This document shows, in pieces, positions 1 to 62,415 of a stretch of 64,000 bases of DNA. Numbering within the stretch: the stretch's first letter is position 1; the number at the start of each line of letters is the position of its first letter. This DNA comes from Capillidium heterosporum. Lineage: Eukaryota > Entomophthoromycota > Entomophthoromycetes > Entomophthorales > Capillidiaceae. The translations under genes and the position numbers were made by a program. A model generated the notes under the pieces. The model did not search any database. It saw only the letters and a list, made by a program, of their open reading frames with translations, and was not told the origin of the DNA. The stretch covers positions 248,001-312,000 of the forward strand of contig WBMQ01000013.1 in assembly GCA_016630905.1 (NCBI GenBank), read 5' to 3'.

Positions 1-279
1 GATCTAGTTGAAGTGTATCAGAAAAGTCAACTGTGGGGTATGGATGATCTAAGTGCAGTAGTTGAAAAGTTCTTGATCTTCAAATGTGATATAACGAACC
101 CATTCCAAATTTTGGAGTACTGCTACGCGAACGATATTAGAAATGAGCTTTACTTTCAAACTGATTAGCTGTGTTAAAGCCAATTTTAAGGAGCTGGTCT
201 CCAAAGAGGAATATATGGCAAATTTGGAAAGCCTTCTTTCCAGCTACTTTCTTAAGGTCTTTGATGATCTGATGAGTTG
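1..279 (+). pseudogene. C-terminal piece of a BTB/POZ-BACK protein, cut by the window edge and frame-broken
   Basis: The first frame opens at base 1 (DLVEVYQKSQLWGMDDL...CDITNPFQIL) and aligns with the BACK-like C-terminus of the MATH-BTB protein at 35222-36329 (DLIEMYRKCTMWGIEEL...CDFTNPIKIL). It hits a stop near 165. The match resumes one base out of frame (SCVKANFKELVSKEEY) and ends at the TGA near 277-279. Dropping one T from the TTT near 154-156 joins the two halves. It is either a decayed copy or a real gene with an inserted base. The 5' part lies outside the window, so BTB identity rests on the paralogue alignment. Confidence 0.6.
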
Positions 280-23815: not shown

Positions 23816-26175
23816 TATAATCTTGTGATAAAAAATAGAAAGTCTTAAGTTGAGATAAAGCCGCATCTCCTTAGCTTTATAGTTGGCTATGACATCACCT
23901 TTCCAAGTATTAGTTCAATTAATGATTCTTTTTATGACGTGACCAAATTTTTATAGGCTGCTTGAAAAGAACTTTCTTGAGTTAGAATGTCGACAAGAGA
24001 TGGAATTGAAAATGATGCTATCTTTATTTAGATTTGATAGAAACCTCCACATAGATTATCACTTGCGATATCGATTAGAAAATTTGGTTGTTGGCATGGA
24101 ATGGATAATTCTACTTCCTACAAAATAGGGAACCACCCAATACAGTTCAATCTCAATAGCTCTACTAAATTGTAGTAAAAATAAAGACGAACATCAATAT
24201 ATTGATAGTTTTCCTTTTCTAGTGGGTGAGCAATGCATTTCAAAGACAAGCTTTTTTCACAGTATAGTAAGTAATCTTCAGCCTTTTGAAATTTTCTGCA
24301 TTTGCATGAAAAGTTTTAAACTATAGGTATATCTTAATGGGTTTTGTTAAGTTTTGTGCAATTGTGTAGGTTAAAGATCATTAGTTTAACGTAACTAACC
24401 ACCAAACCTTTGCTATCCTTTTGGTAGCTTTTTCTTTTATTAAACATTGTTTAAATTTACAGTAAATTGTTATTTTAAAGGGCTATATATATCAAATCTC
24501 ACTAAACTTTCAAGTAAATATTATGCATATCAACTGAAGTCCTTAAACTCAATCCAATTCTTTCAAGTGAATTTATAGCTATATTGGGAAGTATAGATCA
24601 AGCTATTTTAATTAACGAAATCTTTAATGATAAAAGATTAAATAAGTTGCTGCAGTGCATTCCTTGTATGTTTTACTTCTAGTCGCTACACATATATTCG
24701 TATTTAACACCATATTATCGAATTAAAAAGTTTGTATCTATCCAAAACTAATAATATTTTTATACCAGTTAGTACAGGATATAGAAATATAGAAAGTAGG
24801 GCAACAAATAAAAACATGGCATTCCATTTAAATATAAAATTTTAACATGAAGCTTCTATTTTTTCAATCTAAATAGAAACAGAAGGTATATTAAATTTTG
24901 GTAAGATTTATTAGAACCAACTACTTGATTACCTTTTTTCTACTTCTTATTCCCACTTTCTTAAGATAAAGGGATATTTTTGGCATTAGGTTAAAAGTTA
25001 GTGTTGATAAGCTCAAGTGCATTCACCTACCTTCGCATATGCTTTCCTATATTATCGGTGCTGTTCTCACTATGGTAAACAGAGATGACGGTATATTATA
25101 TTCAGTTGGAAGTAAATTTTCTACTTGAACATTTTGAAGAGATAACCACAGATATTCTGTTCCAAATAGAGATCAGCTTCCTAAGCGCAGTTAATCCAAG
25201 TAGACTTGATGCTATCCTTCTACAACTAGGGGGTCACTTCCTCATACCTGGAGATTAAACCAGTCAATTATGGCAGTTAAGTGCAAAATACCAAATCTTG
25301 TGTAATGGATATCCCAAGAGATGTAAAATGCAGCCATAATTTACACTTTGCCTTTAATAATGGAACTAAAAGTATAGACAGTGAGTTCAATTATATTAGA
25401 GTTAGTTTTGAGTTCATATTGGTGTCAAAGTGAAAGTTAGTGAGGCTGCAAATATAATAGCGATCATTTGATGGCATGGTGTTTTCCAATTCAACTTAGT
25501 TTTCAGTTTTTATAGTACATCTAAAATAAGCACGGTAGCTATAGGTGATGTAGCTTTAAAGTTTTATTTAGAGCAACAAATCAGACATCTAACTTAGCAA
25601 GGAAGCTAGGTAGCAATGTTCAAAACTTTACTATCAATGTACTTTTAGATGGGTAGTACTGTATTGTAGATGTAGCGTGTTGGGCAATGATATATCCAGA
25701 TTTCAAATGCCTTCACATCCTACCTAGGGTTTTCACTTTGTAAACTCTTAATAAACTTTTATTATGCGGTTTTTCAAAATGAGAATTCTACTTTTGAAAA
25801 AATATTTTTGACTTCTGGAAGTTTTATATTGAATTTGGACCTATTGTATCACCATTTCAATTAGCCTTTTATCAAATCTATCAAATTTGATTCAAAGTCT
25901 TTGACAGTGATGAGTTGGTTACTAACTGAGATTTGGGCAAGTTGACTTATGTCAAGTTTGAACTATTTCATAAATAAATCTTGGATTATAGAAAACCTAA
26001 TTTAATAATAGCATCGGTATTTTAGTTTCCAGCTAAACCTAAAAGTATCGTATTAACTTGGTTTTATAGGATTTGCTTTCAAGAAACGTCAAACTAACAC
26101 CTATCAATTTCTAAATTATCCGAGCTACGATAAACTTAGAAAAATGTAAAGTTGACTAGCTCAATTCTTTTCAAA
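23816..26175. other. Long AT-rich gene-poor stretch
   Basis: About 2.4 kb without a supportable ORF on either strand. No repeat, RNA gene or regulatory element was recognised. Confidence 0.5.
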
Positions 26176-27584: not shown

Positions 27585-27893
27585 ATGTTGGCAAACTTAG
27601 GACTGAGATTTCTTACAAATTTAAAAGAAAAGAGTACAATCGAATTTCAACAACCTTCGAAGATAACTATAATGACTTGCGAAACTTTTAAAGCTGAGCT
27701 TGTCGGTATCAACAATGAATCTAAGAGAATAGAAATAGAGTTAGATTCCACTAAGCTAAACATCCACTACAAAACCAATAAGTGTAAAAGTAAGAGTTTT
27801 AATAAAGTTACTAAACAAATGGCATTCCTATTAGTAAATATAGCCAATAATACAAATAATATATATATAGTAACCTATAAAGATAGCTTATGA
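27585..27893 (+). CDS. Small hypothetical protein
   Basis: An uninterrupted 102-residue ORF that begins MLANLGLRFLTNLKEKST and is rich in Lys, Ile and Asn. It carries short alternating strands (ITIMTCETFKAELVGI, RIEIELDSTKLNIHYKTNK) and a basic stretch (CKSKSFNKVTKQ). I do not recognise a family. Base composition is like the surrounding AT-rich DNA, so it could be spurious. The open frame of over 300 bases in such AT-rich sequence, ending just before the inverted repeat, is the only support. Confidence 0.35.
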   Translation: MLANLGLRFLTNLKEKSTIEFQQPSKITIMTCETFKAELVGINNESKRIEIELDSTKLNIHYKTNKCKSKSFNKVTKQMAFLLVNIANNTNNIYIVTYKDSL

Positions 27894-28199
27894 AATTCGT
27901 CAGGCATATTAAAAGCGAAAAAACCCTGCAGTTATCTCACTGAAAGCGAGGCCAAAAAACTTCAATCGTAAAGTTACTTGAGAATGTAGCGTTTTATAGT
28001 AAAGCTAGCTAGGCGGTACTTTAGTTTCCAAGTATTAACTAGGCTATTGATCTGCTTGTTCTGAGTTTTAGTATCTAGATTCGATATATTTCCTTGTATT
28101 ATTAATATGTTTAAAATACAATGTATCCGAATTTAAAGAGGAAGGGAGATCTTTGGATTTACAATTGATATTTTAATAAGGATACTTTTATGAAGGATA

Positions 28200-28680
28200 G
28201 CATTAGGCTGCCTAAAGTTCGATTGTAGAGGAGTTAAAGCTAAGGACATTAGTGGTGTTGAAGAAGAACAGTTTATCAGCTCACATGAAGCTGCTGCTGA
28301 GACTGCTTCTCTCTACTTTAAGGCAATGTTCAAGCCTGGTATGGGTGAAATGGAAACTGATGCCATAGTGGTCGACGATAGCAGGTGCCGGAATCAAAAT
28401 AATAGTTGGGTACATATATGTCAACAAAAGCAACATCGACCACATCAAAGACATCCAAAGTCATTGAGATATAGGCTGTGGCAGCTTGAAGATGTATTGG
28501 TCACATTTCATAGAACTAGTGTATCTTCTGAAGCTGTTTCAATCATAAATTGCGCGGTCCATTATAGAGCGGGAGGGAGATGTCGAGGAATGTGAACAAC
28601 AGGCGATTTTTCAAGGGCTGCTCGAGTGGCTTTTTGATCTACACCTTGCAGACTTTAACTGGAGTGTAGAATGCAGACAT
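28200..28680 (+). pseudogene. Decayed BTB/POZ gene in the left repeat arm
   Basis: From about 28212 the plus strand reads LKFDCRGVKAKDISG..., SSHEAAAETASLYFKAMFKP, GMGEMETDAIVVDD, then in another frame AGIKIIVGYMYVNKSNIDH. These align with the BTB domain of the intact gene at 35222-36329 (VYAHKAILILNVKYFDEMFK; KEIIGFIYTRSL). In-frame stops and frame changes follow, and no start codon is evident. The mirror copy at 38486-38966 has the same lesions, so decay preceded the duplication of the arms. Confidence 0.6.
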
Positions 28681-28942
28681 AATAAACTAAATCTGTAGCT
28701 AAGCTATAGTTGTATGTTCAGCTGTTTATCCACTCGAATCTATACAGTGGGAACATAAAGGATGTACATGCTTTTGAACAAAGCACTTTTGGTAAACTGA
28801 GAATATAGCCAAGTTTTGTACCAGCTAAAGCAGAAAGGTAAATGAGCATCGTAGTATAGCTGAGGGTTAAGTTCATTATAAACAAAAGGCATCTTAAACA
28901 TACAGGCATTTTATTCAGCAAAAGATCTATAAACAACCCAAA

Positions 28943-30641
28943 CTACTCTACAGCCTCCTCCTCACCACCGCTATCACCACCGAATCCAAATGAAAACCCA
29001 ACATTCGATTCCTCAACCAACTTCTTCCAGCCTTCCTTACTCTCAAAGTTATGCTCGCACTGCAAAAACGGCTCTAAGTTCAACTTGCCATACGACTCCT
29101 TAAAGCATTCGTAGAGGGATCCATTCTTACAATTGAAGCCAGAAACCTGGTCCGCCTTCTCCTTCAGGAACTTGAGCACCAGCCCCAAATTACTCTCCGA
29201 GACGAAGTTTTGGGTGACGGCTATGCTAAACTCCAGGTTGACGACGAGGTGCCACCAGCCCGAAGGCACAAATATAATCTCCCCTTCGTTACATATACCT
29301 TCGACCGGCCTTAGGTGGACAGGTAGATTCTTGGACTCCTTCAGTATTTTCCGAGTCTCCATGTAGTAGTTGAGGTGCCATTCCATAATAGAAACGGGGG
29401 CCGTCACCTCAGACGCATCCGAATTGGTAAATATGCCAGGTGGTTGGATATGGGGCGGGAACAAGATCCACTTTTTCTTGCCTTTGATGACGGCATTCCA
29501 AGCTGAAGTCGCATTGGGGTCCTTGTGGAACGTGGAGCCGGAGCGTTCGGGGCCAATAATTAGCCATCGAAAGTCGGGTCTACTTGTACCTAGGTGTTGG
29601 AAGAGGTCGCTAGCAAAGTATTGGGGGACGTTGTACTGCTGTTGGAGTTTAGGGCATACGATGGGGAACTTTTTGTCAAAGAGGTATAAAGGGGATTCGT
29701 CGGTCTGCTGGTTGGAGTAGCTGATGTATTGGGACAGCGTTGCATCTACCGCCTCTGCTCTAAACTTGGTGGAGCCGTAGTCTTGAAGTAGGCTATCTAA
29801 GTTCCAAGTTTTGTAGGCTTCCCAGTTGGTTACGACATCGGTCAAAATTACCGGAATGTTGGGCACCTCGTAGTCTTCGATAAACTCTTGCAAGCTTAAA
29901 CCACTTCTACGTTCGATGTTGTCCTTGCCTACAAAGTTTTGGAAGTTTAAACTGGTATAGAGCCAAGGTTGGAACATGTGGTCGCTATATACGTAGCTGG
30001 CTTGGATGGGATACTTGTGCAGCTTTTCGACTTTCCATATCCTCCACCTTGTACTGTTGAATTAAATAGCTGATTCTCCAAGACACTTTAAAATTTAAAT
30101 CATCCTTGTAGTCTTGTAAATACTTTTCCTTCCAAAAATCTTCGTAGTAGCTGATAGTGTAGAGCACTTGGCTTACCCTTGCTAAATTGACAATGTCAAG
30201 GGTTGGCAGAAACTCTAATATTTGGAAGATAAGTTGGTCCGATAGCTTGTTTAATTGACCTAAACCTACCTTGCGCCTATCTACAAAGTCTCCATTCTTT
30301 TTGTCTATGTAGTAGTTGCCTAAAGGCTTGATACCTAGTGGGTGTGGCTTCAAGCTATCACTGTTGTCGTTGGTGCCCTTGCCTCTGTCTAGCTTCGGTG
30401 AGGTCTCAGTCGATGGCGTGAACCTGACTTTCTTCCTATCTCCTTGTGGGACCTTTTCGTTATCTAAAATACTGTCTCCTGTCATCTGTGTTGGATTTCG
30501 CTCTTGAAGATCAAAAAGTTTTAGCTTTGGTTCCTTAAAATCTTTTCTTAAGTTTGAAGTGCCAATCCTATCAGAAACTATTGCACCATAGCACCATTTC
30601 CATTTTATGATTATTTGCAATTGTTTCTGACCAGAATGCAT
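28943..30641 (-). CDS. F-box / JmjC-domain (JMJD6-like) protein, left copy, one frameshift
   Basis: 1,699 bases, one more than 566 codons; 565 aa once the extra base is removed. A basic, low-complexity N-terminus is followed by an F-box (about residues 131-172: LNKLSDQLIFQILEFLPTLD) and a JmjC domain in the JMJD6 style. The iron ligands are visible as HKD (His372, Asp374) in FHKDPNATSAWN and a distal His (about 464) in VPSGWWHLVVNLEFSIAVTQ. Such enzymes use Fe(II) and 2-oxoglutarate to hydroxylate or demethylate proteins; the F-box suggests coupling to an SCF ubiquitin ligase. The extra A is in GGAAAGTC (plus 30032-30034); the right copy has GGAAGTC. The tail is acidic (GGEEEAVE). Confidence 0.82.
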
Positions 30642-31167
30642 TATTTCAGTCCAAAGTCTGTTTATTCTTTCACTTCAGAGTTATTCAACCGCCGACCCTT
30701 TTACTCAAATATTTTTGTTGATATTTCCTTATACTATCCAATAAATTTCCTTTTAAAGGCTTATTAAAATTCGATTTATATATGTTGATATTCAAAAGAA
30801 GCGATTAAATAGGAACCTTGAAGTAGAAAAATTGCTATTGGAAACATAATTCCACAGAGCAAGAGAGTATATTCTTTATATCTATACCAAACTGCAAGAA
30901 AACTGCTTGTCGTAAATGAGTTTAAAGATAAATGAGTCCGACAACAGTATACATCTAAAATAATAGTCAAAAACAATTTAGAAAGCCAATGATGCTAGTA
31001 AGATGGAAATCACTAAAATTAACCAACATCAAATTTAAAGTACAAATGAACCAATTAAATCATCCAATTTTCTTTATAGGAATCATGACACTGGCTTTAA
31101 TCAAAATTTTCAAAACTAACCTAAATTTTCAAAATATAGAAAAGGAACAAGTAGATATATAAGGAGG
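30642..31167. promoter_or_regulatory. Divergent promoter region, F-box/JmjC left copy and ELM1-like gene
   Basis: About 525 bp between two outward-facing starts. The repeat arm ends at about 30753, so the left F-box/JmjC copy keeps only about 110 bp of upstream sequence in common with the right copy. The rest is unique. A TATATAAGG string precedes the ELM1-like start by a few bases (31155-31163). Confidence 0.4.
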
Positions 31168-32831
31168 ATGTTAAGAATAACAAAACTTACCAACTACTCA
31201 ACAATAGCCAAAAGTTACAAACATAACAACTTCAAAGTTCTAGTAGTTAGTGATAACATCGTCGGAAATGAAACTAGAAGTTTAAGTTTAGCCAAAAAGC
31301 TGGTAGGGCGAGAAGGGAAGCTAACCGTTCAATATATTAAAAGTATACCAGGTAATTTACATTATTATAATTTATTTATTGACATTTAAATATTAGTTAT
31401 AGATTGGCTACCCAACTTTTTAAAGCCATTTGTTGTAAATGCATACTACAACTTTATAAAGAATAAAGGTATACTTTATATGTTTTGTTTTATTATACTA
31501 ACGCCATATAATTTAGAGAATCTACCTTTATTTTTGACACCTTCAAAAGATAAAGCTAACCAAGGAGATGGTATAAAGTTCAAGGAAGTAATAAGCAACG
31601 ACTTTGATTTTGTTATCGGATGCGGTAAAGGTACAGTGATACCAATGCTGACTTTACGTAAACTGTCCAAACAACCTTTCTACAGTAACGTTTTTAAATG
31701 TTTCATTTTTAACCATACGGTTCACAACAGTACAAATTGAACATCCCTATTTACCCTACAAGTTTTTTGACTCGGTAGTACTACAGAAACATGAGCTATT
31801 GAAATTAGGTAGATTTTATTGACAACATGGTTATTTATTATCCTGTAGCCCATTTAGGACCTGTACTTTCTCAACAGAAGAACACGATAATAACACAAGT
31901 AAATCCACATTTATAAGCTATCGACATTACTAACCTTGAAAAGTTGGCACTGAATCAGCTAACTGAACAAACCTTAATTTCCAATCAGCCCAGCCCCATC
32001 TTCAACAAAAATGTGTATAAACCAGAACCCAAAGGAATAACTTTAGCTGTACTGATAGGAAACATGGATTTCTCCAACTTTACCTACTTAAATAGTCACT
32101 GCCAAAAGTTAACTGAAGATTTGGAAGTATTGTAGTGCTATTTATCTTTATACTTATATTTTTGCCTTTTAAAGTTATTGGTTAAGCAGTTTAAAACTAA
32201 AGTGCTGATAAGTTATTCGGAAAGAGCACCCGATTCAGTAATGTTTTATATGTCACAATAGCATTAACATTGTTGATAGTTTAAAGATCTAGTAGATAAA
32301 AAAGTGGCATTGTAAGGTCTAAAAATGTATATTTCTAACCGTGTCACTAGGTTACAAGAACAAGGGTATTTAATTTTCAGCCCAGGTCCACTGCATACAA
32401 CCAACTGGACGAGGGCTCAGTCCTATCAGTACTATTTGACTGTACTAGATGTATCTACCCATATTGCTGTGCTTGCTGGATCCACCAACCTTATATCGGA
32501 GGCATTATCGACTCGGTAATCCACTCTTATTTTAGACACTTGCTAACCTCAATCTTTAAAAATTAGTAAGCCAGTTTATCTAATCGGTAGTGATCAAAGT
32601 CGTAAAGACAATTTTACATTCAAGCAGCGACTCTTCAAAAACAATTGGGCACGACCCTTCCATGTAAGTAAACGGTATGTCAGTCCTGGCGATCCCTTAA
32701 GTTTCCTGGGCAGGCATCCTGATTTTGTATCACTTTCCAAGAGCTTTGGGGACGAAGAAGTTGCCAAGGTCGTCAACAAAGCGTTGGAATTGAAGGCAGA
32801 TAGGGACGATAAACTGAAATTAAACAAATAA
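31168..32831 (+). CDS. ELM1-like mitochondrial fission protein (DUF1022 family)
   Basis: Ten predicted exons: 31168-31351, 31397-31434, 31519-31684, 31731-31808, 31849-31898, 31944-32126, 32175-32237, 32280-32311, 32351-32515, 32567-32831. All join in frame to give 407 aa. Family hallmarks: VLVVSDNIVGNETRSLSLAK near the N-terminus, DFVIGCGKGTVIPMLTLRKL, then IQIEHPYLPYKFFDSVVLQK, and near the end AGSTNLISEALSTRKPVYLI. These are the blocks of the ELM1-like/DUF1022 family, which has a nucleotide-sugar-transferase-like fold; in plants ELM1 recruits dynamin to mitochondria. Fungal members are little studied. The first 20 residues are basic and hydroxylated and may target mitochondria. The gene is undamaged. 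Confidence 0.8.
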
Positions 32832-32844
32832 AAGTCTAAGCGTT

Positions 32845-33479
32845 TTATTGTATGGTTCTTAAATAAGCTTCCACCCAACTCTGGATCTTTTCTACGTTCT
32901 GCTCCATATCTTCGACTGTATTGGAAGGTAGACTTAATATTATATCGTTATCGTAGGACTGATAGGCTTCCTCCTTAACTACCATAAAAATTTCACATTC
33001 CAAGTTTTCGGTTATCTTCTTTTCGCTGTAGTCTCTTTAGTAGCAAAAAATTAAATGTTAATAAAGTTAAATCATGTTTTAAATGCACCTCTTCTTTAAC
33101 CGGTTGTATAGGATGCTGTTCTCAGTTTGAAGAACGACTACCAAGTTAAAGTACCTTTCGGGGAAAAGTTCACAACTGTGGAAATCGACCACCTTGTTCC
33201 CTGTCTTGATTATCTCTTCCATCTCATCTAAAAACTTTTTATAATAAAGCAAAAGTTAATAAACAGAGAAATGAATGAAAAATGGCACTTTACCTTGTCG
33301 TCATTTAGAATGTAAGTATCAAAAGCTTCATCGTACCCGTCATGCAAGTTGTTGGACTTTATCAGCTCACTGCAGTTGATATGCTCGAACCCGGTGGCTA
33401 AAGCTACCATTTCGGCCAAAGTCGTCTTACCAGTACCAGGGGTACCAGTTATAAGTATATTGGGGAACTTATTGGTCAT
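32845..33479 (-). CDS. AK6: Adenylate kinase isoenzyme 6 (FAP7/hCINAP family)
   Basis: Three exons on minus: 33479-33294, 33234-33089, 33034-32845; 173 aa, the usual family length. The P-loop is NILITGTPGTGKTTLAEMVA, followed by HINCSELIKSNNLHDGYDEA, the NMP-site region VVDFHSCELFPERYFNLVVV, and the LID-side LKKRDYSEKKITENLECEIF. FAP7/AK6 is a nuclear kinase and ATPase needed for 18S rRNA maturation through Rps14. The gene converges with the ELM1-like gene (14 bp between stops) and is divergent from AP-2 sigma (170 bp between starts). Confidence 0.92.
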
Positions 33480-33649
33480 CTTCTACAATCTTGAAAATTA
33501 AAAAGGAATTGTGGTTTAAATTCGAAAGCCACAAATGGGAATTTGGAAGGACCAATCATTTTGGCTTCAACTTTACATTTGTAAGCTTACTCAGAAGCAC
33601 AACCTAATTCACCTTTACATTTTCGTTCGAACATAATCCAGCTAAAGTT
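33480..33649. promoter_or_regulatory. Compact divergent promoter, AK6 and AP-2 sigma
   Basis: Only 170 bp separates the two start codons, so the promoters must overlap. No element was assigned. Confidence 0.35.
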
Positions 33650-34221
33650 ATGGTAACTATATATATTTGAGATGGAGCAGCCAGCTTATACCTCCAAAAT
33701 AGATACGGTTTATCTTGGTACAAAACCGACAGGGCAAGACGCGATTGAGCAAGTGGTATGTCCCCTACGAAGATGAAGAGAAAATTAAGTTGAAAGGAGA
33801 GATCCATAGACTGATAGCACCTCGAGACCAGAAACATCAGTCCAACTTCGTCGAGGTACCCTTTACTTTCCTTCTACCGACTTTAACTTTTATTTTATAG
33901 TTTAGAAATCATAAAGTTGTATATAGAAGATACGCTGGTTTATTCTTCTGCTTCTGTGTAGATAGTAATGACAACGAACTTGCATACTTGGAGGCTATTC
34001 ATTTCTTTGTCGAGGTTCTAGATGCCTTCTTCGGTAACGTGTGTGAATTGGACTTGGTCTTCAACTTCTACAAGGTAACTTTTAATTGAGTTTAATAATG
34101 TGCTTATTTTGTGCTGTAGGTTTATGCAATTTTAGATGAATGCTTTTTGGCTGGTGAAATTGAGGAAACTTCCAAATCGGTTGTACTAGCGAGATTGGAT
34201 CACCTAGATAAACTGGAATAA
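33650..34221 (+). CDS. APS2: AP-2 clathrin adaptor complex, sigma subunit
   Basis: Exons: 33650-33652 (the ATG alone), 33703-33855, 33901-34074, 34120-34221; 143 aa, one more than the human protein. The sequence is a full longin-type small subunit: [110 protein letters not shown]. In AP-2 it helps bind dileucine cargo at the plasma membrane. NFVEFRN and the spacing fit sigma-2 better than sigma-1 or sigma-3. All junctions are in phase. Confidence 0.93.
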
Positions 34222-35221
34222 TTTTATTTATCTTTTCTCTTCCTTTGTGCTTCCTATGTCTTCGAAGAGTAGGAAACTAGTTCCCCAAAATTTAGGTTCG
34301 AAGTGGGTTAGATACACTTATAAAGCTATTGGTCCCAATGTCGTGTTGTCCTTTGTTGTAGTTAGTTTTACTTGAGATTACTATTTACTACTATAATATC
34401 CTTGTTATGAAACTATCATATATGTTAGTAAGGAACACCTTTTCTATCACTTTTATTTGACAAATAAGACTGTATTTTGAGCAGCTGTATAAGTATTTTA
34501 TTTTGATTACCAACCCAATCTATCACAGACACACCCATCAATCTTCATACAAGTAATACGACAACATAAGTTGACGAGCTGGATGACAATAGTATCTTAG
34601 AATGGTAGCAGCAGATCTTTCGCTTTGTTTACCCGGCTTAGATACTCATACATATACCCTTCAACTTAATAAGATAGAGGATCTATTTGAGTCTGGTGTA
34701 GGAACGCTCATAACGCTCGATGGTGGCTGATATGGGAGATTTACAGCACAATGCTTGGCGTCAGCCTACACTCTTGTCCCGTCATAGTGAGTTTAATTGT
34801 AGAGCTAACTAAAACTCAACTCAACACTACTTAACCTAGAAGTTGGATAAAGTATATACGGAGATGTGAGTCATAGTATAGTGCTCGGTCATATATGCTA
34901 TGTTGTTATATGGGAACTTAAAGCAGTTGATAAATCTACTTTATATGGTGTTCTAAATCCACAAAGTCTATAGAAGTATGGTAGCTGAAGCTCTCAAAGC
35001 TAAAATTTTAAAAGTATAAGCATATATATGAAGTTTGTTGACTTTTACTTCTAAATGCACACCCAGAGAAACTAATCTAATCTAATCTCTTGCTCTATGT
35101 AGTTATGTTTCTAGTAACAATTTTCTACTTAGCAAGATCCTCCATATCAAGATTCATATTTAATCGCTTCCTTTTAGATACTAACATATATGAATCAAAT
35201 AAAACAAACTTTAATAAGCCT
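34222..35221. other. Intergenic, no gene seen
   Basis: 1 kb between the convergent ends of AP-2 sigma and the MATH-BTB gene. A less AT-rich patch at about 34600-34800 shows no sustained frame. Nothing supported. Confidence 0.45.
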
Positions 35222-36329
35222 TTAAGGTGTGGTTATCAAATCCTCTAAAACAGCAATATAAAATTCAACAGGAAGGTTTCTCAAGTAATCCATATTCTCT
35301 GAGATAAGTGTTGAGTTTACAGAGGAAGCCTTTAACTTGTAACTTGCATGTCGATGAAGTGAGCCTTTTATATCGTATTCGTAGCAAAGGTATAAGATCT
35401 TGATGGGGTTTGTGAAGTCGCATTTGATAACCAAGATATCCTCTAGAATCTTACACAGCTCTTCAATTCCCCACATAGTACACTTCCTGTACATTTCAAT
35501 AAGATCATCGGCCGTAGCCCCATGTACAAATTCTTTGCCAAGGCTTCTAGTATAAATGAATCCTATGATTTCCTTGAGATTCTCAAATTTGATATCGTCG
35601 ACTTTGATAAGTCCAGTTGTCGCTTCATTTAGATCTGCTTTGAACATCTCATCGAAATATTTGACGTTGAGGATTAATATTGCCTTATGGGCATATACTG
35701 TCTGCATATTATCTGAAAGCTCACCTTCTACTTTAACTGAGTTCATACACTGAAATCTTAAATCGAAGTTCTCAGGATTGTTAAACATTCTGCTAAAGTT
35801 AGAAAGGTGATTAAATTTGGTAGAAACTTTGGATGAGACTAATGCATGTAGATTAAAGCTCAACGAGAGCTTATGTACATTAGAGCCTATGAAAGAACTA
35901 TCGTATTCTAAATGTTAGTGCATTGAAGTATAAAACTCACCAAAGTAAGAAAGGTCATCTAAAATTGAGCCCCTGTCTGTGTGAGCTGATTTAGCATCAG
36001 GTAAGCTACTATAAGAACGTGATATTCTATATCGGTCATTCACTTGACCACAGCTACAAATGACATGCATTGTAGGATCAAGTGTACTCTTGACAGCTAG
36101 ATAAACGTAAAGTATATCTTCCTTGAATGAAAAAACTACATTATCTTGAATTTGATTCACATTTAGCAAAATACATACTAGTAAAGGTTATTAAAATAAA
36201 TAAACTAAAATTACATGTATTATTAATGATTCTAGAATAAACATCAATCCAGTAATTATCAATTTTCCAACTTCTCTTAAGGTAGGTAGTGGTGCAATTA
36301 TGGGGAATACTTATAGAAACTAAAGTCAT
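35222..36329 (-). CDS. MATH-BTB-BACK protein, probable cullin-3 adaptor
   Basis: Exons on minus: 36329-36215, 36177-35941, 35907-35222; all in phase, 345 aa. The N-terminal 130 residues look like a diverged MATH/TRAF domain (RSWKIDNYWIDVYSRI; FSFKEDILYVYLAVKS). The BTB domain lies at about 165-245 (VYAHKAILILNVKYFDEMFK; FENLKEIIGFIYTRSL), followed by a BACK-like helical tail (MYRKCTMWGIEELCKILEDI). MATH-BTB proteins normally link substrates to Cul3 ubiquitin ligases. This is the only intact BTB gene in the window; four broken relatives lie at 1-279, 835-1626, 28200-28680 and 38486-38966. It sits in the core of the inverted repeat, divergent from the right F-box/JmjC copy. Confidence 0.72.
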
Positions 36330-36524
36330 TTGTGCTGAAGCAGATCTATTTTCGAAAGCTTAAAGTATAGATGGGTTGCTTAAAAATGTATAGACCTGAA
36401 AATACTTTAGACAAAGGAAATTTATTAGATAGTATAAGGAAATATCAACAAAAATATTTGAGTAAAAGGGTCGGCGGTTGAATAACTCTGAAGTGAAAGA
36501 ATAAACAGACTTTGGACTGAAATA

Positions 36525-38223
36525 ATGCATTCTGGTCAGAAACAATTGCAAATAATCATAAAATGGAAATGGTGCTATGGTGCAATAGTTTCTGATAGGA
36601 TTGGCACTTCAAACTTAAGAAAAGATTTTAAGGAACCAAAGCTAAAACTTTTTGATCTTCAAGAGCGAAATCCAACACAGATGACAGGAGACAGTATTTT
36701 AGATAACGAAAAGGTCCCACAAGGAGATAGGAAGAAAGTCAGGTTCACGCCATCGACTGAGACCTCACCGAAGCTAGACAGAGGCAAGGGCACCAACGAC
36801 AACAGTGATAGCTTGAAGCCACACCCACTAGGTATCAAGCCTTTAGGCAACTACTACATAGACAAAAAGAATGGAGACTTTGTAGATAGGCGCAAGGTAG
36901 GTTTAGGTCAATTAAACAAGCTATCGGACCAACTTATCTTCCAAATATTAGAGTTTCTGCCAACCCTTGACATTGTCAATTTAGCAAGGGTAAGCCAAGT
37001 GCTCTACACTATCAGCTACTACGAAGATTTTTGGAAGGAAAAGTATTTACAAGACTATAAGGATGATTTAAATTTTAAAGTGTCTTGGAGAATCAGCTAT
37101 TTAATTCAACAGTACAAGGTGGAGGATATGGAAGTCGAAAAGCTGCACAAGTATCCCATCCAAGCCAGCTACGTATATAGCGACCACATGTTCCAACCTT
37201 GGCTCTATACCAGTTTAAACTTTCCAGAACTTTGTAGGCAAGGACAACATCGAACGTAGAAGTGGTTTAAGCTTGCAAGAGTTTATCGAAGACTACGAGG
37301 TGCCCAACATTCCGGTAATTTTGACCGATGTCGTAACCAACTGGGAAGCCTACAAAACTTGGAACTTAGATAGCCTACTTCAAGACTACGGCTCCACCAA
37401 GTTTAGAGCAGAGGCGGTAGATGCAACGCTGTCCCAATACATCAGCTACTCCAACCAGCAGACCGACGAATCCCCTTTATACCTCTTTGACAAAAAGTTC
37501 CCCATCGTATGCCCTAAACTCCAACAGCAGTACAACGTCCCCCAATACTTTGCTAGCGACCTCTTCCAACACCTAGGTACAAGTAGACCCGACTTTCGAT
37601 GGCTAATTATTGGCCCCGAACGCTCCGGCTCCACGTTCCACAAGGACCCCAATGCGACTTCAGCTTGGAATGCCGTCATCAAAGGCAAGAAAAAGTGGAT
37701 CTTGTTCCCGCCCCATATCCAACCACCTGGCATATTTACCAATTCGGATGCGTCTGAGGTGACGGCCCCCGTTTCTATTATGGAATGGCACCTCAACTAC
37801 TACATGGAGACTCGGAAAATACTGAAGGAGTCCAAGAATCTACCTGTCCACCTAAGGCCGGTCGAAGGTATATGTAACGAAGGGGAGATTATATTTGTGC
37901 CTTCGGGCTGGTGGCACCTCGTCGTCAACCTGGAGTTTAGCATAGCCGTCACCCAAAACTTCGTCTCGGAGAGTAATTTGGGGCTGGTGCTCAAGTTCCT
38001 GAAGGAGAAGGCGGACCAGGTTTCTGGCTTCAATTGTAAGAATGGATCCCTCTACGAATGCTTTAAGGAGTCGTATGGCAAGTTGAACTTAGAGCCGTTT
38101 TTGCAGTGCGAGCATAACTTTGAGAGTAAGGAAGGCTGGAAGAAGTTGGTTGAGGAATCGAATGTTGGGTTTTCATTTGGATTCGGTGGTGATAGCGGTG
38201 GTGAGGAGGAGGCTGTAGAGTAG
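36525..38223 (+). CDS. F-box / JmjC-domain (JMJD6-like) protein, right copy, one frameshift
   Basis: Mirror image of 28943-30641 with the same 1,699-base span, again one base too long. Here the frame is correct through MEVEKLHKYPIQASYVYS, where the left copy is broken, and is lost 85 bases later: AAACTTTCCAGAAC (37218-37231) against AAACTTCCAAAAC in the left copy. After that the JmjC half (37273-38223) is open and carries HKD and SGWWH. Combining the two copies gives one complete 565-residue protein. The gene is divergent from the MATH-BTB gene, with 195 bp between the two starts. Confidence 0.82.
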
Positions 38224-38485
38224 TTTGGGTTGTTTATAGATCTTTTGCTGAATAAAATGCCTGTACGTTTAAGATGCCTTTTGTTTATAATGAACTTAAC
38301 CCTCAGCTATACTACGATGCTCATTTACCTTTCTGCTTTAGCTGGTACAAAACTTGGCTATATTCTCAGTTTACCAAAAGTGCTTTGTTCAAAAGCATGT
38401 ACATCCTTTATGTTCCCACTGTATAGATTCGAGTGGATAAACAGCTGAACATACAACTATAGCTTAGCTACAGATTTAGTTTATT

Positions 38486-38966
38486 ATGTCTGCATTCTAC
38501 ACTCCAGTTAAAGTCTGCAAGGTGTAGATCAAAAAGCCACTCGAGCAGCCCTTGAAAAATCGCCTGTTGTTCACATTCCTCGACATCTCCCTCCCGCTCT
38601 ATAATGGACCGCGCAATTTATGATTGAAACAGCTTCAGAAGATACACTAGTTCTATGAAATGTGACCAATACATCTTCAAGCTGCCACAGCCTATATCTC
38701 AATGACTTTGGATGTCTTTGATGTGGTCGATGTTGCTTTTGTTGACATACATGTACCCGACTATTATTTTGATTCCGGCACCTGCTATCGTCGACCACTA
38801 TGGCATCAGTTTCCATTTCACCCATACCAGGCTTGAACATTGCCTTAAAGTAGAGAGAAGCAGTCTCAGCAGCAGCTTCATGTGAGCTGATAAACTGTTC
38901 TTCTTCAACACCACTAATGTCCTTAGCTTTAACTCCTCTACAATCGAACTTTAGGCAGCCTAATGC
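38486..38966 (-). pseudogene. Decayed BTB/POZ gene in the right repeat arm
   Basis: Mirror of 28200-28680. It carries the same broken frames, with two residue changes in the readable part (W to R and I to V near the segment N-NNS-VH-CQQ). It is too damaged to encode a BTB domain. Confidence 0.6.
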
Positions 38967-39048
38967 TATCCTTCATAAAAGTATCCTTATTAAAATATCA
39001 ATTGCAAATCCAAAGATCTCCCTTCCTCTTTAAATTCGAATACATTAT

Positions 39049-39787
39049 GCTCTATACTAATTAATGTCAATTATGAATATACATTTACCGTAGAATGTAA
39101 TGTTTTTCAAAAGCCTTACTGCCAAGACTACCTTAGCTTAACTTCATTGAGATAATCGTAAGACTTCATCACCTTCATACGCAACTTATTTTCAAGTAAT
39201 CATTATAGACTATACTACTCTTTCTTTTGAGATTATCCACTATATTTTCTAATACAAACATTATACTATCAGTAACTTAATAATAGCTTTTGTTACTTTT
39301 GTGACGATTGATCTTGTAGTAAATATTTAACTTAGTACATTGAAGTCTGCTTCCATCTTCCTAGGTTTGGCGTCGATACCGACAATTTCTATCCTCAAAG
39401 ATTTTGATAGGCATTTGGCAAAAGCTTGCAAAGAATGATGTTGTGCACGCCTATCCTTAACTCGGTAGATATTCCTGGGAATACATCTGTTAAAGCATAC
39501 GAAATTCTCTATAACTATGGTTTTTATGCTACATTTGATAGAGAAATGTTTAGAGAGTTTTATGATTTGGAGATAACTTCAAGATTTAATAACAGTCAAG
39601 GAACAAGCTAATTATTGTTACAAATATTTGCCAGCTTTACTTATAAAACTGTTTGAATTTTATCGACGAACTGGGCCTAATTTTTGGGCTTAGTTCTTTC
39701 GCATTTCTAGTGAATAAGTTTATCAGATCAAAAGTTTAAACAAGCTTCACTTTTCAACTCAAAAACTCAACAAATTCACCAGACATA
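39049..39787. other. Intergenic with one weak ORF
   Basis: Between the right repeat arm and TAH18. An ORF at 39426-39611 (61 aa, MQRMMLCTPILNSVDIPGNT...) has no recognisable family. It may be a remnant or chance. The 3' part should hold the TAH18 promoter. Confidence 0.4.
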
Positions 39788-58515: not shown

Positions 58516-59544
58516 TCAAGTTAAATACCGCTCCCTAAACCCATTCCAAGTAACTACCAAAGTATCAGAAATGCCCGTATGTAAAACTAACAAAAACACT
58601 GGATTGACAATAGCCAACAAAAAACTAGAGATCGTAGGTACATGTTCGGTCCACAATTCCTTATACTCAACTCCATCTAACTTAAAATACATAAAAGGCT
58701 CGTACATCCCCACCACAATAGTAGGTACAATCAACACAACATAAGTGAACATAGTAACTAGAGCTCTAGTGAAAAAAGACTTACTGAATGTTGACATGAC
58801 ATCTTTAGATTGTTGTTTCGCAGCTGAACTATTGGAAAATCGTAACTGGGATGAAAAGATATTACGTTCAGAGCTCCTGCAATTCTCACTTATCCCATTA
58901 ATCTCATGTAAAGAAGTTGAGCTTAGTTGGGTCTGGTATACCATCAGATTGGTCTTTACCTTTTTGAACAACAGCACCAATTTAATGTAACAGTACAGCA
59001 TGGTTACCAAATGTACACTCAACATAACTAACAAAACAAAGTACCACAGCTCACCAAAAACATTCACATTGTATTGAACCATACATACCATTCCATTCTG
59101 GCTTAACTTATAGTTGTCAAATATAGCCGCAAAAGTCGCAAATACCAGCCCTATAAAAAAATCAATCCCTATCAAAGTATAAAAAGTTGTCAAGGACCAA
59201 GAAGACTTTTTGATAACTTTGTTGAACTTTTCCAAAGCAGAAACAGCTATCATACCACTGGTGAAGTAGGGGATCATGGTATGGATGATGCCTAATACTT
59301 GGCAGTTGGAAGAGTCGGGATTGGCTAACCAGTTGAAAGGTAGACTTAATTTCAAGGCTATTTGGATTATAGTGAGGATGGGAGTTATCAAGTCATATAT
59401 AGTAGTTATAAATAGGATACTAAGGCTCTTGTTGCGGTCCTTTGTGGTGGATTTTAATTTGTAGATGAGGTATATGACTAAAAGGTTGCAGAGAAGGCTT
59501 AAAGTTGCTAGGACTAGGGCTATCGTTTCGAAAGTGGTTGACAT
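58516..59544 (-). CDS. Rhodopsin-class (family A) seven-helix receptor
   Basis: A single exon of 342 aa with seven hydrophobic helices at about 8-30, 42-66, 85-107, 118-140, 162-188, 262-285 and 303-328. Class A hallmarks are present: Asn in TM1 (LLCNLLVIY), Asp in TM2 (TTIYDLITP), a Cys at the top of TM3 (SNCQVLGI) with a partner Cys in loop 2 (MVCMVQY), an E/DRY-position motif ALEKFNKV, Pro in TM6 (VLIVPTIV) and NP in TM7 (NPVFLLVLH). The third intracellular loop is long and Ser-rich. The ligand is unknown. It lies 1.9 kb from a divergently transcribed paralogue at 61420-62415. Confidence 0.85.
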   Translation of the reverse strand: MSTTFETIALVLATLSLLCNLLVIYLIYKLKSTTKDRNKSLSILFITTIYDLITPILTIIQIALKLSLPFNWLANPDSSNCQVLGIIHTMIPYFTSGMIAVSALEKFNKVIKKSSWSLTTFYTLIGIDFFIGLVFATFAAIFDNYKLSQNGMVCMVQYNVNVFGELWYFVLLVMLSVHLVTMLYCYIKLVLLFKKVKTNLMVYQTQLSSTSLHEINGISENCRSSERNIFSSQLRFSNSSAAKQQSKDVMSTFSKSFFTRALVTMFTYVVLIVPTIVVGMYEPFMYFKLDGVEYKELWTEHVPTISSFLLAIVNPVFLLVLHTGISDTLVVTWNGFRERYLT

Positions 59545-61419
59545 ACTTCTTTGTTGCGACTGCTGCTGTAAGGCACTATCGTTTTATCCAAGAAGTTTTA
59601 AAAGGAACTTCATTAAATCTATTTAAATGTCTATTTGGTGTTCCGAATTGCCAATTTTGTATTAAGAATGGGCACCATTCTAAACGACTGTTCCTTCTTA
59701 TGGAAGTTGAATTCTACCTTTCAACTTCGTATAGTATTACCTAAAGTTAACCAGAAACTCCAATACCTGCTTCTAAAAAGATGTTCCAGGTAGGTAGTGC
59801 AGTATTTCCGTCCTGTTTATAGATTGGATGGATGAGCTCTACGATAGGAGTTTCTAGTAACTCCGTCAAACAAAATACGTAATAGACAAGCCCAAGTGTA
59901 ATTAGATGGACAGGTACTTGCAAAAGAATTTATAAGTTTATATTGTTTGGAATGGACAGATTTTTACAAGTTGGAATACGCAATAAATTATAAATGCTTC
60001 AAGTGCATTTGGAATCAAGAGTTTCTACATCTTTTACTGGATGTCTTTAACAAATTTATAAGGCAATTTATATAGGTTAAATTGTATATCCTTTTTGTAC
60101 ATCGGGAAGGTATTACTTCATTTCCAGCTCCAATTACTAAAGTACAGTATTGAATTCTAGATCAAAGTGTAAATATTCTATTTATAACAATTTAGTTCAA
60201 GGAACTCCAACCTTTTACAAGAAATACTGATACAAAATTTAGTAACGTATACATTCCAAGAAAATCGACCTAATTTAAAGGCATTTAGTAGCACTTTGTC
60301 GTAATAGTTGAAATCGAATAGCGTAAATTTATCCTACTTGTGAATTCGACTTGTAGAGTGGTTTCCTTTGACGTAAGCAGTAGATGTTAAAGAATATAGT
60401 TGCAAAATTTAAACTGATATAGGTTATTTGCCTCTTATAATATATTTAAGCTGGACTGTCCTTTTGTAGTCTTCATTTAAATCCAGCTTGCTACAAACTA
60501 GCTCAAATTCGACACTGCCTTTCTTAACTTGAATTGTAGCACTTGGCAATTAAAAGTACATCACCTTGTAGGAGAATATTGGTCTACTTTGCTTTTACTG
60601 GGCTGAGCTTTTGACATTCAACACTATAGAAATTGCGAATTTGAGTTATGGATATGCCATTGTAATTTCAAAAGTTAATTGATTTGGCTTGCCGTTTCAA
60701 ACTTATTCCTCAAGCTGAATCGTATCAATCGATAGAGCTGAACTGGGGTACTATGTTCAAGTAGTCTTATTCTGAAACTAGTAACCGGGCACTAAACCCA
60801 GCTTTTCAAAATCTACCTCTCAAAAGGTTGTCCTAAAACCGAGTACCCCTTTCAACAATGTTCATCTCAGCCTTCCATTAACCCGAACCTAATAGATTAC
60901 AAAAGATGGGATAGTGCCTAGCAGCCAATAAGCTTTCAAGGTTTAAACTGTCGCCTGCTATTTCCAATACTTCATCCGATCTCAACTACCCTGTAGAAAT
61001 CAAAAGTACGGCTTGCATTTGAAACTAAAACTCTACCTAAACTTTATCAGTATAAATTACCGAATTTGGATAAAATAGGGATAGCCATCTGTTCTATATT
61101 CCAGTTCCTAAGTTTACTTTATGCAAGGTCGAGAAAAATGAACTGGTTCCGGACTTATTAGCTAAATCTCCCATCAAAATTTTGTTACAAGAGCTGGAAG
61201 GAAAAGCCTAAATTTCGAATATCAGCTTTTTGTCTTTATTTCTTCTCTTCTCTTTTAAATAGCTATATTTTCGCAAGACGAACTGCAACTGTACATATAT
61301 ATCTACATACTACTTACCTCCAACTAATATTCCGACTTGTACCATAGCGAAGCTTTAAACCCAACTTCAATAAAAAACTTTAAAAGTTCACCTACCAACA
61401 TACAGCCTCAACCCTAACG
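59545..61419. other. Spacer between the two divergent GPCR genes
   Basis: About 1.9 kb, presumably containing both promoters. A stretch at about 60760-61030 is less AT-rich than its surroundings but has no sustained reading frame. No feature assigned. Confidence 0.45.
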
Positions 61420-62415
61420 ATGACTCCCTTAGAAGTAATAGCCCTACTACTAGCTATCCTCAGCTTACTCACCAACCTTTTAACAATCTACCTCATCCTC
61501 AACTTGAACTTTGATCCCAAAGACCGCAGGTTAAGCCTCTTAATCCTCCTAGTAACTACTTTCTACGACCTCGTAACGCCAACGCTAACCCTATTCCAAA
61601 TAATTTTCAACCAGAGTTATGACTTCAACTGGCTGCAAGCCTCAACCTTCAACTGCCAAGTCGTTGGTGCTGTACAAACAATGGTCCCTTACTTTACTAG
61701 TGGTATGGTGGCTATAGTCGCATTAGAACGGTACAACAAAGTCTACCAAAAGAATTGGACCCATACCTTTTTCTATACCATCATATTAATAGATTTTGTA
61801 ATTGGGATCGTGTTTTCGACATTGGCAGCTAGCTTCAGCAACTTTATGATGACTTGGAACAATACAATTTGTATGATCCAGTTCGATATCAACGTCTTTG
61901 GGACAATGTGGTACTTTATTTTACTGGGTATGTTGCTTTTGCATACAACGATCATGGTCTTCAGTTATACAAGTATATTTTTACTTTATAGGAAAATCAA
62001 GCGCAATTTGAATAGGTACCAGTCCAAAGTCCACCTGCACGTCCAAGAAAGTTTTACTATTGATCTCAACCTCAACAATTCCAAATCTATCCAAACTATA
62101 CCCTCCTACAACACTGTCAACCATAACTCCGACTCCAAATGGTTTACCACTAGTTTCTTAATCCGAAGTTTAATCCTTATAGTTACCTATATAGTGCTAG
62201 TCGTACCTACCATAGTAATATTGGTGTACTTACCTTTACAGTACTACCAATCAGAGGGGACTTACATTGGGGCGTACTGGACTTCTATGGTACCACCTAT
62301 ATCTATATTTCTGTTAGCTACTATTAATCCACTATTCTTACTGCTGTTGCACAGTGGTATTTCGAACCAACTGAGCTGTACTTGGACCAAGTTTAAGAGG
62401 CGATGGGGGTTTTAA
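61420..62415 (+). CDS. Rhodopsin-class (family A) seven-helix receptor, paralogue
   Basis: A single exon of 331 aa, clearly related to the receptor at 58516-59544 along its whole length (for example PYFTSGMVAIVALERYNKVY against PYFTSGMIAVSALEKFNKVI). It has seven helices; Asn in TM1 (LLTNLLTIY), Asp in TM2 (TTFYDLVTP), the TM3/loop 2 Cys pair (FNCQVVGA; TICMIQF), the motif ALERYNKV at the DRY position, VVPTIV in TM6 and NPLFLLLLH in TM7. The ERY is closer to the animal consensus than in its partner. Loop 3 is shorter and Asn/Ser-rich. It probably signals through heterotrimeric G proteins; the ligand is unknown. Confidence 0.87.
   Translation: MTPLEVIALLLAILSLLTNLLTIYLILNLNFDPKDRRLSLLILLVTTFYDLVTPTLTLFQIIFNQSYDFNWLQASTFNCQVVGAVQTMVPYFTSGMVAIVALERYNKVYQKNWTHTFFYTIILIDFVIGIVFSTLAASFSNFMMTWNNTICMIQFDINVFGTMWYFILLGMLLLHTTIMVFSYTSIFLLYRKIKRNLNRYQSKVHLHVQESFTIDLNLNNSKSIQTIPSYNTVNHNSDSKWFTTSFLIRSLILIVTYIVLVVPTIVILVYLPLQYYQSEGTYIGAYWTSMVPPISIFLLATINPLFLLLLHSGISNQLSCTWTKFKRRWGF

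What the first reader, a model, noticed from the sequence alone, without database searches (positions are those of the whole stretch)
28118..39048. Large, nearly identical inverted repeat (2.64 kb arms, 5.66 kb core)
Arms 28118-30753 and 36413-39048 are reverse complements with only scattered differences. Each carries a whole F-box/JmjC gene and a decayed BTB gene and ends about 110 bp upstream of the JmjC start. The core holds four genes (ELM1-like, AK6, AP-2 sigma, MATH-BTB). Such a structure can flip its core by recombination between arms, or arise by palindromic duplication; it could also be an assembly artefact. No transposase or terminal repeat explains the boundaries.
Basis: seen in the sequence. 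Interest (0 to 1): 0.75.

Follow-up and report, generated by a model that had tools for sequence, protein, structure and literature searches.

The report
Old fungal inverted repeat, recently homogenised
A fungal chromosome carries two mirror-image copies of a 2.6 kb stretch that look new but sit inside older, decayed mirror-image gene copies, so this is probably old duplicated DNA kept alike by copying between the arms, an arrangement that in yeast and mammals can flip the DNA in between.

Summary
Confirmed: window 28120-30753 and 36413-39046 are reverse complements, 99.62% identical over 2635 columns (8 substitutions, 2 single-base length differences). The search of the 29.5 Mb assembly found no other copy. 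The interpretation needs correcting: the arms look like the homogenised middle of an older, larger inverted duplication. Just inside the arms, 30753-30873 mirrors 35079-35225 (86.7% of ungapped columns, 28 gap columns of 148), a stretch that on the right starts at the stop codon of the core BTB gene. Just outside, both flanks hold a BTB-family N-terminal exon in mirror orientation (67.5%). Both sides read BTBx, F-box/JmjC, BTBy; the left BTBy is reduced to its downstream end. Gene conversion of the middle is the best explanation; a one-off recent copy is the main rival. Flipping of the core is inferred, not shown. A second inverted repeat, on contig C3 (8.4 kb arms, 21.9 kb core), has the patchy identity expected of gene conversion. 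Closest known case: the Saccharomyces chromosome XIV flip/flop region. Each JmjC copy has its own frameshift. An assembly artefact is unlikely but not excluded without reads.

The parts
28120..30753 (+). left homogenised arm: decayed BTBx (BTB domain 28212-28394 and a weak C-terminal match 28535-28657, + strand) and F-box/JmjC gene (- strand)
36413..39046 (-). right homogenised arm, reverse complement of the left arm, 99.62%
28943..30674 (-). left F-box/JmjC gene, split over two overlapping frames (ORFs 29985-30674 and 28943-30061)
   Evidence: (Cupin_8 86.6, JmjC 51.8, F-box 24.4 bits)
36492..38223 (+). right F-box/JmjC gene, split over two overlapping frames (ORFs 36492-37259 and 37219-38223); its length difference lies about 90 bp from the left one
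30753..30873 (+). remnant of the downstream end of a left BTBy gene, mirror of 35079-35225
   Evidence: not found in the 19 other BTB loci held; shuffle test
35079..35225 (-). stop codon and downstream region of the right BTBy gene, mirror of 30753-30873
35222..35914 (-).
27585..27893 (+). left BTBx N-terminal exon, outside the arm
   Evidence: family matches on C42 and C38 lie just upstream of BTB matches
39193..39385 (-). decayed right BTBx N-terminal exon, mirror of the left one (45% over 51 aa; 102 of 151 ungapped DNA columns)
28005..28078 (+). 74 bp sequence in the left outer flank only, 85% like C12:763036-763109; 41 bp from the arm end
30874..35078 (.). single-copy core: ELM1-like, AK6-like and AP-2 sigma genes
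   Evidence: Mito_fiss_Elm1 65.2 bits; AAA_18 110.7 bits, AK6 name recalled; AP-2 sigma, up to 92%

Best explanation
An old inverted segmental duplication put mirror copies of a BTBx - F-box/JmjC - BTBy cassette on either side of a small core (ELM1-like, AK6-like, AP-2 sigma). Later the left BTBy coding region was lost and a 74 bp sequence entered the left outer flank. Ectopic gene conversion between the arms then copied one arm's BTBx-JmjC middle onto the other, so the 2.64 kb between these two length differences is 99.6% identical while the ends of the cassette keep their older divergence. Shown: the mirror order of remnants, the contrast in identity, and a second inverted repeat in this genome with patchy identity. 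Inferred: gene conversion as the copying process, JmjC having been part of the old duplication, and occasional crossing over that would flip the core.
For: Inner mirror remnant: 104 of 120 ungapped columns identical, 28 gap columns, absent from the 19 other BTB loci held, above all 200 shuffles (77.0 against at most 33.7 bits). Outer mirror remnant of a BTB N-terminal exon: 102 of 151 ungapped columns, 45% over 51 aa, above all 200 shuffles (36.5 against at most 31.9 bits). The exon-to-BTB gap differs by 83 bp between sides, 74 of which are the left-only sequence. Three of 10 arm differences lie within 50 bp of an arm end (P 0.005). C3 repeat: 28 of 5479 columns differ in one part and 295 of 2776 in the other, with a 377 bp identical run inside the diverged part (longest in 2000 permutations 100).
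Against: The outer similarity is at family level: a C42 BTB gene matches the left exon about as well (69% over 97 bp), so it does not prove that the two outer exons are sister copies. Inner and outer remnants differ in divergence, which one duplication event does not predict without further assumptions. The longest difference-free run in the arms (1039 bp) is not unusual (P 0.07), so the arms themselves show no mosaic. The C-terminal end of BTBx, which makes the inner remnant a second gene, rests on one weak match (26% over 50 aa, E 0.003 in a small search). No relative's genome could be compared.
Confidence: 0.6

Rival explanations
1. Recent one-off inverted copy: mirror-image BTB loci already existed, and one repair or template-switch event recently copied BTBx-JmjC from one side to the other, ending by end joining at the left BTBy stop codon. 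The 0.3% divergence is then the age of that event and nothing is ongoing.
For: Sharp ends; the inner junction falls at the BTBy stop codon with short matching sequence (CCTTT against CCTTAAAGG); no mosaic within the arms.
Against: BTBx-JmjC-BTBy order seems mirrored on both sides, so JmjC need not be new on either; differences gather near the arm ends; the C3 repeat shows patchy homogenisation in the same genome.
Confidence: 0.28
2. Assembly artefact: the second arm was created by a mis-joined or chimeric read or by misplacing a haplotype.
For: No reads or depth were available; small contigs C9, C10 and C13 of this assembly share near-identical stretches.
Against: The arms differ at 10 places; diverged mirror remnants continue beyond both ends, which a mis-join of one arm would not create; core, left flank and right flank each have one full-length place; the core is not palindromic as in a hairpin read.
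Confidence: 0.08
3. Mobile element with long terminal inverted repeats that carries host genes.
For: Two long inverted segments around a core.
Against: The arms were found at two places only; no transposase family among the 7 peptides scanned; the ends lie within or beside BTB genes; the core holds housekeeping-type genes.
Confidence: 0.02

Closest known systems
Saccharomyces chromosome XIV flip/flop region with Centroid genes (PMC9731477; outline, abstract and 12 passages seen)
   Same: Two multi-kb, gene-bearing, near-identical inverted repeats around a core; arms homogenised, gene conversion proposed as the mechanism; arms carry members of a fast-evolving gene family.
   Different: There the core is 24 kb, both orientations are seen in many strains and homogenisation is shown on a species tree. 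Here the core is 4.2-5.7 kb, one assembly is known, the genes differ (BTB and F-box/JmjC) and homogenisation is read from diverged flanks.
Human inversions mediated by inverted repeats (PMC3961182; 12 passages seen)
   Same: Inverted repeats recombine and inversions recur between and within species.
Sclerotinia sclerotiorum MAT inversion (PMC3574095; outline and abstract seen)
   Same: A fungal core of similar size (3.6 kb) between inverted repeats made of a duplicated gene part.
   Different: Repeats are 250 bp, the locus is a mating-type locus and inversion segregates 1:1; no mating-type gene was seen here.

Membership tests
Flip/flop region between homogenised inverted repeats | two multi-kb, near-identical, gene-bearing inverted repeats around a single-copy core | tested here: met
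Flip/flop region between homogenised inverted repeats | arms more alike than the age of the duplication predicts | tested here: inconclusive
   met by the internal yardstick (99.6% against 86.7% and 67.5% remnants), but a one-off copy into mirror BTB loci would look alike; no species tree possible
Flip/flop region between homogenised inverted repeats | both core orientations exist in the species | not testable with these tools
   no reads or other strains held
Centroid gene family (yeast) | arm genes are Centroid homologues | not tested
   arm genes are F-box/JmjC and BTB by Pfam and by matches to BTB loci; no Centroid comparison made
Transposon with terminal inverted repeats | transposase and multiple insertion sites | tested here: not met
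   two places only; no transposase among 7 scanned peptides
Fold-back (hairpin) palindrome | arms meet at a short spacer | tested here: not met
   5659 bp of unique core between the arms
F-box/JmjC proteins (JMJ22/JMJD6-like) | F-box plus Cupin_8/JmjC domains above Pfam cut-offs | tested here: met
   on the two ORFs of one frameshifted gene scanned apart; JMJD6 the best solved structure; JMJ22 name from rows

The most novel reading that the evidence does not exclude
BTB gene clusters of this fungus seed a class of recombining inverted repeats (at least two, on C5 and C3), so that the orientation of the housekeeping genes between them toggles in populations. At the focal site the only close F-box/JmjC copies in the genome are two, broken at different places, so exchange between arms could reversibly change whether a working copy is present.
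Probability: 0.08. Interest if true: 0.7.

Novelty: new member of a known kind. Interest (0 to 1): 0.4.

Why it matters
It is a likely early-diverging-fungus example, with a second one in the same genome, of inverted repeats that look newly made but are old and homogenised; the identity of such arms then does not date the duplication. It makes inversion polymorphism testable outside yeasts with a simple PCR design and points to gene-family clusters (BTB) as possible seeds.

Tried and rejected
Mobile element: rejected on copy number and gene content. Fold-back palindrome: rejected on core length. A second haplotype of this locus in the assembly: no second full-length place of arms beyond the pair, core, or about 6 kb of each flank. 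The two 20 kb queries listed no near-identical copy but did not list the query's own place either, so I do not rely on them. My first model, one left BTB gene interrupted by JmjC, was dropped because the arm's BTBx relic has its own C-terminal match before JmjC (one weak match). Equal exon spacing with an intact paralogue was considered and dropped once the 74 bp sequence was found in that gap. In one search the exon finder returned a peptide for 4 of 11 BTB loci only; 7 gave none. Gene order in relatives through contig lengths: the AP-2 sigma search (120 of 402 rows shown) listed no row named as entomophthoralean, so it said nothing. JmjC protein against plasmids: 5 records, distant, uninformative. 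tRNAs and RNA families in the window: none found. Paper searches (listings of 5 to 12 papers each) showed the yeast and Sclerotinia cases and nothing on this kind of locus in this group of fungi; that does not show absence from print. Correction on checking: an earlier count of the longest identical run in the C3 repeat and of its gaps was redone with exact coordinates, and one search is the one used.

Full report
WHAT IS THERE. Window 28120-30753 and 36413-39046 are inverted copies, 99.62% identical over 2635 columns with 8 substitutions and 2 single-base length differences. The window is C5:248001-312000 of an assembly of 29.5 Mb in 44 contigs; a DNA search of it with the left arm found these two places only. 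The core and 6.1 kb and 6.5 kb of the left and right flank have one full-length place each; the left flank also has 13 short matches elsewhere. The organism is a fungus. The best relative of the JmjC protein is from Neoconidiobolus thromboides, 52%; that it is entomophthoralean is my inference, and the AP-2 sigma list shows other fungi on top.

GENES. Each arm holds an F-box/JmjC gene (Cupin_8, JmjC and F-box on the two ORFs; JMJD6 the best solved structure). In each arm the gene is split over two overlapping frames; the two length differences lie about 90 bp apart. Sequencing error is possible. In the C3 repeat described below, 5479 ungapped columns of nearly identical arm show two gaps (19 and 2 bases) and no single-base gap, so stray single-base errors between repeat copies are not the rule there. 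Other JmjC matches in the genome are partial (46% over 89 aa at best, on C41). Each arm also holds a decayed BTB gene, BTBx: the BTB domain matches three BTB peptides (E 5e-5 to 4e-7 in a small search) and a C-terminal stretch matches one of them weakly.

THE ARMS SIT INSIDE AN OLDER MIRROR. Right inside the left arm, 30753-30873 matches the reverse complement of 35079-35225: 104 identities in 148 columns with 28 gap columns, 86.7% of the 120 ungapped columns. On the right this stretch begins at the stop codon of the BTB gene of the core, BTBy. Of the 34 other BTB matches, 19 were held as loci; none shows it. The left side thus seems to keep the tail of a BTBy gene whose coding region is gone. 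Outside the arms, 27585-27893 resembles sequence just upstream of BTB matches on C42 (two) and C38 (one), and its decayed mirror lies at 39193-39385 (45% over 51 aa; 102 of 151 ungapped DNA columns). Both matches exceed all of 200 shuffles of one partner in blocks of three bases: 77.0 against at most 33.7 bits inside, 36.5 against at most 31.9 outside. The outer match is at family level, since a C42 BTB gene matches the left exon about as well (69% over 97 bp). From the end of the N-terminal match to the BTB relic is 322 bp on the left and 239 bp on the right; a 74 bp sequence found only on the left, 85% like C12:763036-763109, accounts for most of the difference. Both sides therefore read BTBx - JmjC - BTBy towards the core, and the single-copy core is ELM1-like, AK6-like and AP-2 sigma.

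MECHANISM. A duplication that differs by 0.3% in its middle and by 13% and 32% at its two ends is what homogenisation by gene conversion would leave. The inner limit of the 99.6% zone falls on the left BTBy loss, and the outer limit lies 41 bp from the left 74 bp sequence. Three of 10 differences lie within 50 bp of an arm end (P 0.005), but the longest difference-free run (1039 bp) is not unusual (P 0.07), so the arms alone do not show patchy conversion. The same genome holds a second inverted repeat, met through the BTB search: C3:639444-647868 against C3:669738-678170, 8451 columns, 95.8%, core 21.9 kb. Its identity is patchy: 2402 identical bases in a row, 28 differences in 5479 columns over 639599-645079, then 295 in 2776 over 645080-647868 with a 377 bp identical run at 646205-646581 (longest in 2000 permutations 100). 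That supports patchy homogenisation in this genome. Its outer end abuts a diverged copy of a dispersed element, so its origin may differ. Crossing over between the C5 arms would invert the core; whether this happens was not testable. Inner and outer remnants of the C5 repeat differ in divergence; either conversion reached the inner end for longer, or the outer, decayed exons are older paralogues.

COMPARISON. The nearest known case is the Saccharomyces chromosome XIV region: 4.2 kb inverted repeats, 97.6% identical in the reference strain, homogenised, a 24 kb core in both orientations, gene conversion with occasional crossing over proposed as the cause (PMC9731477, passages). Human inversions at inverted repeats (PMC3961182, passages) and the Sclerotinia MAT inversion (PMC3574095, abstract) are alike in principle. 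The present locus meets the structural tests. Homogenisation is met by an internal yardstick only, and orientation polymorphism is untested. It resembles a flip/flop region in anatomy; that it flips is not shown.

VERDICT. New member of a known kind; moderate interest.

Noticed in passing
G000 C3:639444-647868 and C3:669738-678170 (L040-L043): A second large inverted repeat carrying BTB genes, 8.45 kb arms and 21.9 kb core, with patchy identity.
   Followed up: partly
G000 C3:637687-638728 (L040:1687-2728): Dispersed element of about 1.04 kb with at least 35 near-full-length matches (86-91%) among 132 listed; a diverged inverted copy ends where the C3 arm begins.
   Followed up: no
G000 C9, C10, C13 (L047-L050): Small contigs share near-identical stretches: 99.975% over 4000 bp (C9/C10) and 100% over 3000 bp (C9/C13), so they are redundant contigs or large duplications.
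   Followed up: partly
window 24270-24375: A dispersed sequence of about 100 bp with 11 matches (74-87%) elsewhere in the genome; no Rfam family in the window at gathering scores.
   Followed up: no
window 58516-59583 (-) and 61384-62415 (+): Two ORFs that look like related seven-helix receptors in opposite orientation (judged by eye, not tested).
   Followed up: no
window 1-153 and 1071-1499; C5:239585-240262: Further BTB genes or relics within about 37 kb of the left arm: the locus sits in a local BTB cluster.
   Followed up: partly
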